A stretch of DNA of 64,000 nucleotides from Patiria pectinifera (Eukaryota > Echinodermata > Asteroidea > Valvatida > Asterinidae), in the NCBI GenBank assembly GCA_029964075.1, contig CM057147.1, positions 19,241,513 to 19,305,512 of the forward strand, written 5' to 3'. A program made the position numbers and the translations under genes. A model generated the notes under the pieces. The model had not been told where the DNA came from and ran no database searches. It saw nothing but the letters and a program-made list of their open reading frames with translations. Positions 53,566-56,500 of the stretch are shown piece after piece. Positions within the stretch are counted from its first letter, which is position 1. The number at the start of each line of letters is the position of its first letter.

Positions 53566-56500
53566 TCACAGGTAATCCAGAGCAGGGAAGAGATCAGTGA
53601 AGGACTCCTCCCAGATATTGTCCCCGAGGTTGGGCGACATGTCCGCGCTGTCACTGAACGGCGACACAGGGTTGTCGCTGAACGCCGAGTCGGCACAGCT
53701 GCCCGTCTCGCTCTTGGCGTCGCAACTCTTCATGTCAGAGTCCAGCGAGAGGAGATCGGAGATGTCGCAGTCGAAGACGCCGTTGTCATCGTCGATGGAC
53801 AGCAGGTTGGGGACCGTGGTGTCTTTCGTGTTCAGTGACAGCGAGGCGTCTTTCAGAGAGACCAGCATGTCTTGCAAGGTAGCCTCTGCGTTGCTTCCGA
53901 ATTCCACGACCGAGGCTGGGGAACTCGCACTGGGAGTCAAGTCCATCACTGATTCCTCCATGTCCAGGCAGATTACTTCCGGTTCGACAGTCTCTGGCTC
54001 TGCGGCGGACAGATGAGCCATTTTCTCCTGTTTGATGTCCACGGCGGGTGTGGGCACGGGCGGCCTCTTGACGTACTCGTGGTCGAAGCGGATCAGTTCT
54101 TTGAGGGATTCCAACTCTTCTGTTGAGGGCCCCACCACTGGGTAGGCACCGTCTTGGCCTTGGCCGGCTTCAAAGGAGTCTCGTCCGACATGGCAATGCG
54201 CTGGGTCTTGGGCGTCCAGATTTTCAAGCAGTCCCAGTAGCATGTCAGACTGTGGAAGGGAAGTTAGAAAACTGGTCGTAAAACTTGAAGACATTTCTTA
54301 ACTCTTTCCGGCTAACAGAGTTTATTATTTATCTGTATTACTAGGTTTGCCATTTATCTACACCTGTATGTACGTGTATTTTTTTTTTTCTTCAAATTTA
54401 ATGCTTACGTTTTTTTTTTAGAAATCAGTAGCAAAGACAATGAATTTGATTGCACTAAGATCAATAATGAATTTAAGAACACTGTCAAGCTTAACACAGA
54501 AAACACATATCAACCATGAACAAATACAAAAATTCAGAGATTGATGACTTTGCACCCAATTTTCTTTACAAATGTCATGCATCCCCATTATAGAGTGATT
54601 TTAACTAAGGGCAAATCTTGCAAACCATACTACTGTTATAATCAAAAGTACATACCTCAAGCAGAGAAGTGTTGCCAGCCATGCTGAAATCAGTTGGATC
54701 TGCGCCTGCTGCGGAGGTGCGTTGAGTGCTGCGGACTCAGGTGATCCAACTTCATTCTTTATGACGACCACATCTTCTTCTGTCTTGGTCTCCTGTAGTT
54801 TGAAGAAGGGGACAAAAGAAGAGACTTGCACATCAATGCTTGATAACAGACCAGTTTACACCACCGTGTCAAATAATTGTTGTTTCAAAATACCAGCATG
54901 ACCCAACATGATGTAACTGTTCTGACCACTTTGCAGAAATTGTAATCTAGTCATGAAAAGTCTATCACAAGTCATTCAGTGTCATTCAGTCAAATGCCAA
55001 GCTATTCAAAATAATTTCAAATAAACCGTTACAAAGGAACTCCGGCCTTCTATTCTTCTTCCCAATTACTTGTGACCTGTTGTGCGATTGGAATTGTGGA
55101 GATTGTTTGTAAATTATTTGATCACAAATATGTCACTTTCCAACAGTTCTGATGTTCTATTAGTGAGAAGGGGGCAGGGCGGAGGGGGAAGGGGGCAGGG
55201 CGGAGGGGGAGGGGGTTACTGATTACTTTGTGCTATCTAAACGGAAAAACTTCTGACCCGTCATTCTTGTTTACATGTCACTCACTGTTTTTTGTTTACA
55301 TGTCACGCACTGTTTTTGTTTACATGTTTTGTTTACAAACATGTCATTGTTTACTTTTCTTGTTTACACATCACACTGTTTACATAAATGTGCGTACCAC
55401 TTTGACATCAGCAAGCAGCCCCAGTCTCCGTCGGAGTTCCTGGTTCTCGCTCGTGAGTCTCTCGTTCTCGTCTTTCAAGGCCTCGTTCTCATTCACGAGT
55501 TCTTGGTTGGCCAGCTGCGCGATTTCAAGGGTCTCCTCAATGGTGTCCATGTGGGCCTTCTTGCGGTCTCGTGCAGTCTGTGCTGCTACTCTGTTCTTCA
55601 GTTTCCTGGAAAAAGGCAGTTTTAATTAAATAGGAAAATTAGTAATCATATGTTTACACATTTGACAAATACAAATGGGACCTGATTTTTTTCTTTTTAT
55701 TTGGGAGGGGGAGGGGTTCCGGGGGAGAGAGGTTAACCGCAATAAGTAATGGTCATTCACTGCAAATATGTTGGGATATCATTTATTATGAATTTTGGTT
55801 CAGGAAACATCACACAATTTCTTTTGTTTCAACTTTAAAGGGCCTACTTTCCAAAAATCTGTTGGTTCCCATACACTTTCATGACTTTGTAACATTAGGC
55901 AATAGGCCTTTTACAATATGTTTATTACATTTTTCTAAATATAAAAATATTCATTTGGAGAAAAACATCCCTTGATTAGTTTCAAATAACCTAGGCCATT
56001 GGGACCATTTTAATAAAATTTAATGTAATGTGGGCCTTCAAATCAAACACAAATCGATTATTTATTCGAAACGATACATCTGGAAACTTAGCCCCACTAG
56101 TGTGGCCGTCGGTATGCTGCGCTGAACCTCTGGCCACACACCATGGTACCGCGTGCTACTGAGGACGAAGTTTTCATAAAATCTGCGGTCTGTTTCTTAC
56201 ATTCTCAGTTTCTAACTTTCTTACGGTTGTATTCTATGATGTCTCACCTATCACTTCTGGGATGCTTAGGTCTAATAATGTTCCATTTTCCGAGATATTC
56301 TTCAATCTTTCTGGAGCCCATAATATCAATATGCACTCGTGAAACGTCTGGTGGTGATGGCAGCCATTTTGAATGTGACAAGAGATGACCTCAAGCTGTG
56401 ACGTCGCGTTTATGCAAATTGCTTGTCGAGCGCGCGGCGCGAGGGCGCGAGTTGCAAATGCGACGGCTGTTTCCTGTGCCGTAAATCCTGAATAGTAATC

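What the first reader, a model, noticed from the sequence alone, without database searches (positions are those of the whole stretch)
54708..54739. XBP1 carries a 20-nt IRE1 intron, shorter than the 26-nt vertebrate one
Two identical CCGCAGC loops bracket 20 nt. Removing them shifts the frame precisely into a 240-residue activation region that matches human XBP1s. The human intron is 26 nt, and I recall 23 nt in fly and worm. All leave remainder 2 modulo 3. The loops and the AAG joint are conserved while the intron length is not.
Basis: partly seen in the sequence, partly recalled or inferred. Interest (0 to 1): 0.75.

Follow-up and report, generated by a model that had tools for sequence, protein, structure and literature searches.

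The report
Sea star XBP1 stress-splicing switch
This is the ordinary animal gene XBP1, from what looks like a sea star, with the short piece of messenger RNA that the stress sensor IRE1 is expected to cut out; the piece is 20 bases instead of the 26 of vertebrates, a modest difference that several other echinoderms seem to share.

Summary
On the minus strand two identical CCGCAGC heptamers (54734-54728, 54714-54708) bracket a 20-nt segment, 54731-54712, in exon 3 of a four-exon XBP1 gene. The nearest proteins look like sea star XBP1 (82% identity, unnamed; Asterias amurensis 68%). Both heptamers are predicted 7-nt hairpin loops. The unspliced mRNA encodes a 219-aa XBP1u; removing 20 nt gives a 388-aa XBP1s with the conserved activation tail. 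IRE1 cutting was not shown: no spliced echinoderm protein appears among the 120 hits listed.

XBP1u spacing gives 20 nt as first candidate in one named sea star, brittle star, sea cucumber and sea urchin, 23 in two crinoids, 26 in 62 of 62 vertebrate-type proteins. Fungal introns of 19-20 nt are in print.

Random synonymous codons for the same XBP1s peptide would give that tail with probability 3e-8. Ordinary gene, new member, low to moderate interest.

The parts
57114..57271 (-). XBP1 coding exon 1 (from the ATG)
   Evidence: GT donor after it; the joined protein is covered over 100% by relatives P0001-P0004
55398..55605 (-). XBP1 coding exon 2 (most of the basic region and leucine zipper)
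   Evidence: AG/GT flanks; Pfam bZIP_1, bZIP_2, bZIP_Maf above cut-off
54656..54792 (-). XBP1 coding exon 3, holds the IRE1 intron
   Evidence: AG/GT flanks
54712..54731 (-). predicted 20-nt IRE1 intron, cut CCG/CAGC at each end
54723..54739 (-). 5' hairpin: 5-bp stem, loop CCGCAGC at 54734-54728
   Evidence: closing-pair probability 0.85
54702..54720 (-). 3' hairpin: 5 bp with one A.C mismatch, loop CCGCAGC at 54714-54708
   Evidence: closing-pair probability 0.83
54692..54751 (-). 9-bp outer stem (54751-54743 with 54700-54692) that encloses both hairpins
   Evidence: fold; coordinates counted from its dot-bracket line
53566..54249 (-). XBP1 coding exon 4: rest of XBP1u, then the XBP1s activation tail to the stop 53568-53566
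54237..54693 (-). hydrophobic stretch of XBP1u, residues 156-172 LISAWLATLLCLSLTCY, split by the exon 3/4 intron (54693-54656 and 54249-54237)
   Evidence: Kyte-Doolittle mean 1.81, highest 17-residue window of the protein; coordinates computed from the exon table
54093..54137 (-). XBP1u C-terminal arrest-peptide-like tail WWGPQQKSWNPSKN and stop (54095-54093), in another frame than XBP1s
54093..54711 (-). 213 nt coding in two frames (54711-54656 and 54249-54093)

Best explanation
This is the XBP1 gene of an animal that is most likely a sea star. Shown from sequence: the mature mRNA can fold into twin hairpins of the kind IRE1 recognises, with 7-nt loops CCGCAGC, and cutting each after CCG removes 20 nt. 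The uncut mRNA encodes XBP1u, a bZIP protein with a hydrophobic stretch and an arrest-peptide-like tail. The cut and joined mRNA encodes XBP1s, the same bZIP with an activation tail. Inferred from the mammalian pathway: translating XBP1u pauses at its tail and brings the mRNA to the ER; IRE1, activated by unfolded proteins, excises the 20 nt; an RNA ligase joins the ends; XBP1s then turns on ER genes. The 20-nt length fits most echinoderm proteins examined and only changes how many codons lie between the two loops.
For: Orthology: four XBP1u proteins at 68-82% identity and full coverage, one named Asterias amurensis; bZIP domains; activation tail aligned with 15 XBP1 tails of other animals. 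Intron. The alternative 3' loop 3 nt on, CAGCAGG (a 23-nt intron, also in frame), has closing probability 0.007 against 0.83. Dual coding in another sea star: one nucleotide sequence can encode both the XBP1u tail of Asterias amurensis (P0004) and the separate frame P0126 over all 36 codons testable left of the WWG. XBP1u tail not a by-product: probability 3e-8 that random synonymous codons of the XBP1s peptide give WWGPQQKSWNPSKN-stop; motif WG[PRAT][HQK]QxxW in 115 of the 120 proteins listed (of 1247 found) for the XBP1u query.
Against: No RNA evidence: among the 120 proteins listed (of 1214 found) no echinoderm protein joins the bZIP to the activation tail; the sea-star-like hits are separate frames. 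Whole-region fold energy is not exceptional (z -0.93), and a 51-nt core alone folds without the twin loops. The 3' stem has an A.C mismatch. In the tail, human L246, reported as needed for pausing (PMC4138184, passages), and Y241 and P244 are not kept without a gap. The species' own IRE1 could not be looked for, nor its genome.
Confidence: 0.95

Rival explanations
1. Same gene and mechanism, but the 3' cut lies 3 nt further on, in CAGCAGG, so that the intron is 23 nt.
For: CAGCAGG also fits the loop pattern CNGCAGN (a pattern I recall), and 23 nt also leaves remainder 2. Protein data alone cannot separate 20 from 23.
Against: Closing-pair probability 0.007 against 0.83 for CCGCAGC; the two loops are then no longer identical.
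Confidence: 0.03
2. The site is a relic: this XBP1 is no longer cut by IRE1 and only XBP1u is made.
For: No spliced echinoderm XBP1s among the 120 hits listed.
Against: The activation tail, readable only after the frame shift, is conserved among the sea-star-like frames P0121-P0127; loops and stems are intact.
Confidence: 0.02

Closest known systems
Vertebrate XBP1 (IRE1 intron of 26 nt)
   Same: bZIP, position of the intron, frame-shift logic, SAAG joint, activation tail, hydrophobic stretch and C-terminal tail ending SW.P..N-stop. That the human 5' loop is also CCGCAGC is recalled, not checked.
   Different: Intron 20 nt instead of 26; tail has WWG and K at human position 254, where the 59 xWG-type proteins have L 30, P 14, S 12, Q 2, R 1.
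XBP1 of other echinoderms
   Same: ESAALxxPxQQ spacing that gives 20 nt as first candidate in Asterias amurensis, Amphiura filiformis, Apostichopus japonicus and Lytechinus pictus.
   Different: Two crinoids, Anneissia and Antedon, give 23 as first candidate; an unnamed brittle-star-like protein, P0007, gives 17, 20 or 23.
Fungal hacA/HAC1 with 19-20-nt introns (Aspergillus, Candida albicans)
   Same: Short IRE1 intron of the same length class (PMC3154848 and PMC3472299, passages).
   Different: A different bZIP protein (recalled); no arrest peptide was looked for there.
Drosophila Xbp1
   Same: Invertebrate XBP1u with hydrophobic stretch and C-terminal pausing region already described in print (PMC4138184, passages).
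   Different: Drosophila has Ala at the S255 position and keeps L246 (same source); this tail has Ser at 255 and lacks L246. Intron length of the fly is recalled as 23 nt, not confirmed.

Membership tests
XBP1 (animal IRE1-spliced bZIP) | XBP1-type bZIP domain with close orthologs | tested here: met
XBP1 (animal IRE1-spliced bZIP) | twin hairpins with 7-nt CNGCAGN loops at both ends | tested here: met
   by prediction only; total fold energy not significant
XBP1 (animal IRE1-spliced bZIP) | intron length leaves 2 modulo 3, so removal shifts into the activation frame | tested here: met
XBP1 (animal IRE1-spliced bZIP) | XBP1u hydrophobic stretch and C-terminal arrest peptide | tested here: met
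   sequence level only; human L246, Y241, P244 not kept, so pausing itself is open
XBP1 (animal IRE1-spliced bZIP) | stress-dependent cutting by IRE1 and ligation | not testable with these tools
   no RNA reads; no spliced echinoderm protein among the 120 listed

The most novel reading that the evidence does not exclude
The 20-nt spacing is the old animal state, shared with fungal hacA, and vertebrates lengthened it to 26; and the invertebrate arrest peptide WWG..Q[KQR].W, which lacks the pause-weakening proline of mammals, holds ribosomes differently, perhaps longer, than the mammalian one.
Probability: 0.3. Interest if true: 0.4.

Novelty: new member of a known kind. Interest (0 to 1): 0.22.

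Why it matters
It adds a clear echinoderm example of the IRE1-XBP1 switch with all parts legible in genomic DNA, and suggests that intron length drifts in steps of three while loops, joint and frame logic stay. It also points to a testable comparison: whether the WWG-type XBP1u tail found in the invertebrate-type proteins pauses ribosomes more strongly than the human one.

Tried and rejected
Considered a chance repeat: rejected and by the frame and tail evidence. Considered a 23-nt intron: disfavoured. Looked for nucleotide relatives in viral contigs with a degenerate twin-loop pattern: none. Rfam at gathering thresholds has no match at the site. The sequence search of solved structures gave 31 matches at E up to 10, the best (E 0.00055) and most of the stronger ones in the bZIP region, and no chain named XBP1. 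Hooks and Griffiths-Jones 2011, which other papers cite as the survey of these introns, is not held, so whether it already lists an echinoderm 20-nt intron could not be checked; what I remember of it was not used. The listings of nine library searches showed no title or abstract start about an echinoderm XBP1 intron length, which is not proof of absence. Hemichordate entries P0015 and P0043 seemed to fuse the two frames inside the arrest peptide; two fish records marked low quality (P0236, P0252; names) switch in the same region, so an annotation repair is the likelier reason; left open.

Full report
Observation. On the minus strand of the window the heptamer CCGCAGC occurs three times, and two copies, 54734-54728 and 54714-54708, form the only C[CT]GCAGC pair 8-30 nt apart in 64 kb on either strand. 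CCGCAGC-N13-CCGCAGC has one match, and none appears in 100 dinucleotide-preserving shuffles. The segment between the cut points is CAGCACTCAACGCACCTCCG, 54731-54712, 20 nt.

Gene model. Four coding exons, 57271-57114, 55605-55398, 54792-54656 and 54249-53566, with AG/GT at the internal boundaries, give an unspliced reading frame of 219 aa ending at 54095-54093 and, after removal of the 20 nt, one of 388 aa ending at 53568-53566 (the last coordinates follow from its exon table). Both carry bZIP domains above the Pfam cut-offs. The best relatives of the 219-aa protein are P0001 (82%, unnamed), P0002 and P0003 (71 and 69%, no species given; P0003 is labelled X box-binding protein 1) and P0004 (68%, Asterias amurensis), each over 100% of the query. 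The window is therefore most likely from a sea star; the species was not identified, and its genome could not be searched.

Structure. In the minimum-energy and centroid folds of an 81-nt piece both heptamers are 7-nt loops, the 5' one on a 5-bp stem and the 3' one on a 5-bp stem with one mismatch, both enclosed by a 9-bp stem. Two longer pieces fold alike; a 51-nt core that lacks the outer stem does not. Closing pairs have probability 0.85 and 0.83 at each of the four flank lengths tried (20, 36, 60, 100 nt). With the loops kept, 0 of 500 synonymous resamplings of the XBP1u frame and 0 of 500 flank shuffles match both. Total energy is not exceptional: z -0.93, 34 of 200 shuffles as stable, 39 of 500 resamplings as stable. 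A second possible 3' loop, CAGCAGG, 3 nt on, has closing probability 0.007. No covariation test was possible without nucleotide sequences of relatives.

Frame logic. The spliced frame continues SAAGADPTD... for about 245 residues. In an alignment of it with 15 other proteins (seven sea-star-like frames P0121-P0127, one unnamed, three vertebrates, two hemichordates, one annelid, one oyster) the invariant columns cluster in L-E-x3-E-x-I-x-F-D-H-x-Y-x-K and in the C-terminal W-x3-F-x2-L-F-P. Among the 120 listed of 1214 hits of the 388-aa query no echinoderm record joins bZIP and tail, so splicing itself is not documented here.

Intron length elsewhere. Because XBP1u proteins are translated through the intron, the residues between S-A and the next [PLQR]-Q give candidate lengths 2+3n. 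Of the 120 proteins listed (of 1247 found) plus the window, 121 in all, the first candidate is 26 in 64, 20 in 26 (window included), 17 in 10, 23 in 10, 29 in 4, and none in 7. In a recount without the window, 62 of 62 proteins with a vertebrate-type sequence give 26; of the other 58, 25 give 20, 10 give 17, 10 give 23, 4 give 29, 2 give 26 (P0047, P0063) and 7 none. Named echinoderms: Asterias, Amphiura, Apostichopus and Lytechinus 20; Anneissia and Antedon 23. The unnamed rows that I took as echinoderm-like (P0001-P0003, P0005-P0007, P0012, P0026) give 20 except P0007, whose first candidate is 17 with 20 and 23 also possible. Most rows have a second candidate 3 nt longer, and several protostomes are ambiguous among 17, 20 and 23, so these are estimates, not measured introns. 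Printed fungal cases have 19-20 nt (PMC3154848 and PMC3472299, passages). HAC1 introns range from 19 to 379 nt in the earlier survey as quoted by PMC6222058 (passages), with longer ones in that paper. The plant bZIP60 intron is 23 nt (PMC9237531, passage). A 20-nt intron is thus within the known range.

The XBP1u frame after the intron holds the most hydrophobic 17-residue window of the protein (LISAWLATLLCLSLTCY, mean 1.81) and ends in WWGPQQKSWNPSKN-stop. The primate tail is ...QWGRHQPSWKPLMN (P0050, P0082). In the human numbering of PMC6624018 (passages), W249, G250, Q253, S255, W256 and P258 are the same here; R251 and H252 are P and Q; P254 is K; Y241, P244 and L246 are not kept in an ungapped reading. 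A WG[PRAT][HQK]QxxW motif is present in 115 of the 120 listed proteins; the five without it are P0015, P0037, P0043, P0056 and P0078. Of the 115, 56 have WWG; one of these is a vertebrate, Sarcophilus P0114, and it is the only one with P at 254. In the 56, position 254 is Q, K or R in 52, and 255 is S in 38, N in 13, T in 4, H in 1. In the 59 others, all vertebrate-type, 254 is L 30, P 14, S 12, Q 2, R 1, and 255 is always S. PMC6624018 states that S255 is completely conserved in its natural sequences (logo of 90 BLAST hits) and that nine replacements of P254 strengthen arrest (passages). The invertebrate-type rows here therefore widen the natural variation; what that does to pausing is untested. 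PMC4138184 (passages) already proposed that both elements are conserved in Drosophila, so their presence in an invertebrate is not new.

Is the tail selected in its own frame? XBP1u and XBP1s overlap for 213 nt. Given the XBP1s peptide VVGPSTEELESLKELI and uniform synonymous codons, the exact tail has probability 3.1e-8 and a looser tail pattern 2.5e-7; that the XBP1u frame is merely open over its codons 2-70 has probability 0.019. The uniform codon model is a simplification. For another sea star, one nucleotide sequence can encode both the Asterias XBP1u tail P0004 and the separate frame P0126 across all 36 testable codons left of WWG. Of 96 pairings printed (12 XBP1u by 8 frames; P0234 and P0235 were dropped for lack of the anchor) this is the only full match; the next longest are 20 of 36, 16 of 47 and 16 of 54; 32 pairings are incompatible already in the tail, and the remaining 8 pairings with P0127 had nothing to test leftwards. 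That is as expected if most pairs come from different species.

Mechanism. Shown at sequence level: gene, loops, frames, overlap. Inferred from the mammalian pathway: pausing and ER recruitment, IRE1 cutting, ligation, transcription of ER genes. The finding is correct and ordinary.

Noticed in passing
window 56089-56915: A foldback element: two 355-nt arms 99% complementary with 117 nt between them, inside XBP1 intron 1; a further 39-nt inverted pair lies within. Looks like a recent mobile foldback or MITE-like insertion.
   Followed up: partly
P0015 and P0043 (Saccoglossus, Ptychodera XBP1 records): Both records read the XBP1u frame up to WWGPQQ and then the XBP1s frame ([SG]QLES[LI]...), as if the frames were fused inside the arrest peptide; an unnamed related protein P0022 has the normal end. 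Two fish records marked low quality switch in the same region. Annotation repair or real frame change not settled.
   Followed up: partly
window 36507-36564, minus strand: A tRNA-like match, 44 bits (gathering 29), only 58 nt, with the anticodon arm missing; ARAGORN reports no tRNA. Perhaps a tRNA relic or tRNA-derived repeat.
   Followed up: partly
window 31998-32624, plus strand: A frame with a stretch [26 protein letters not shown], weak WD40-type Pfam matches below cut-off; probably one exon of a WD-repeat gene (Notchless/NLE1 from memory).
   Followed up: partly
window 19247-19822 and 50236-50559, minus strand: Two frames share a near-identical stretch LWSARASI[LF]IMRVD, so a dispersed repeat is likely.
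   Followed up: no
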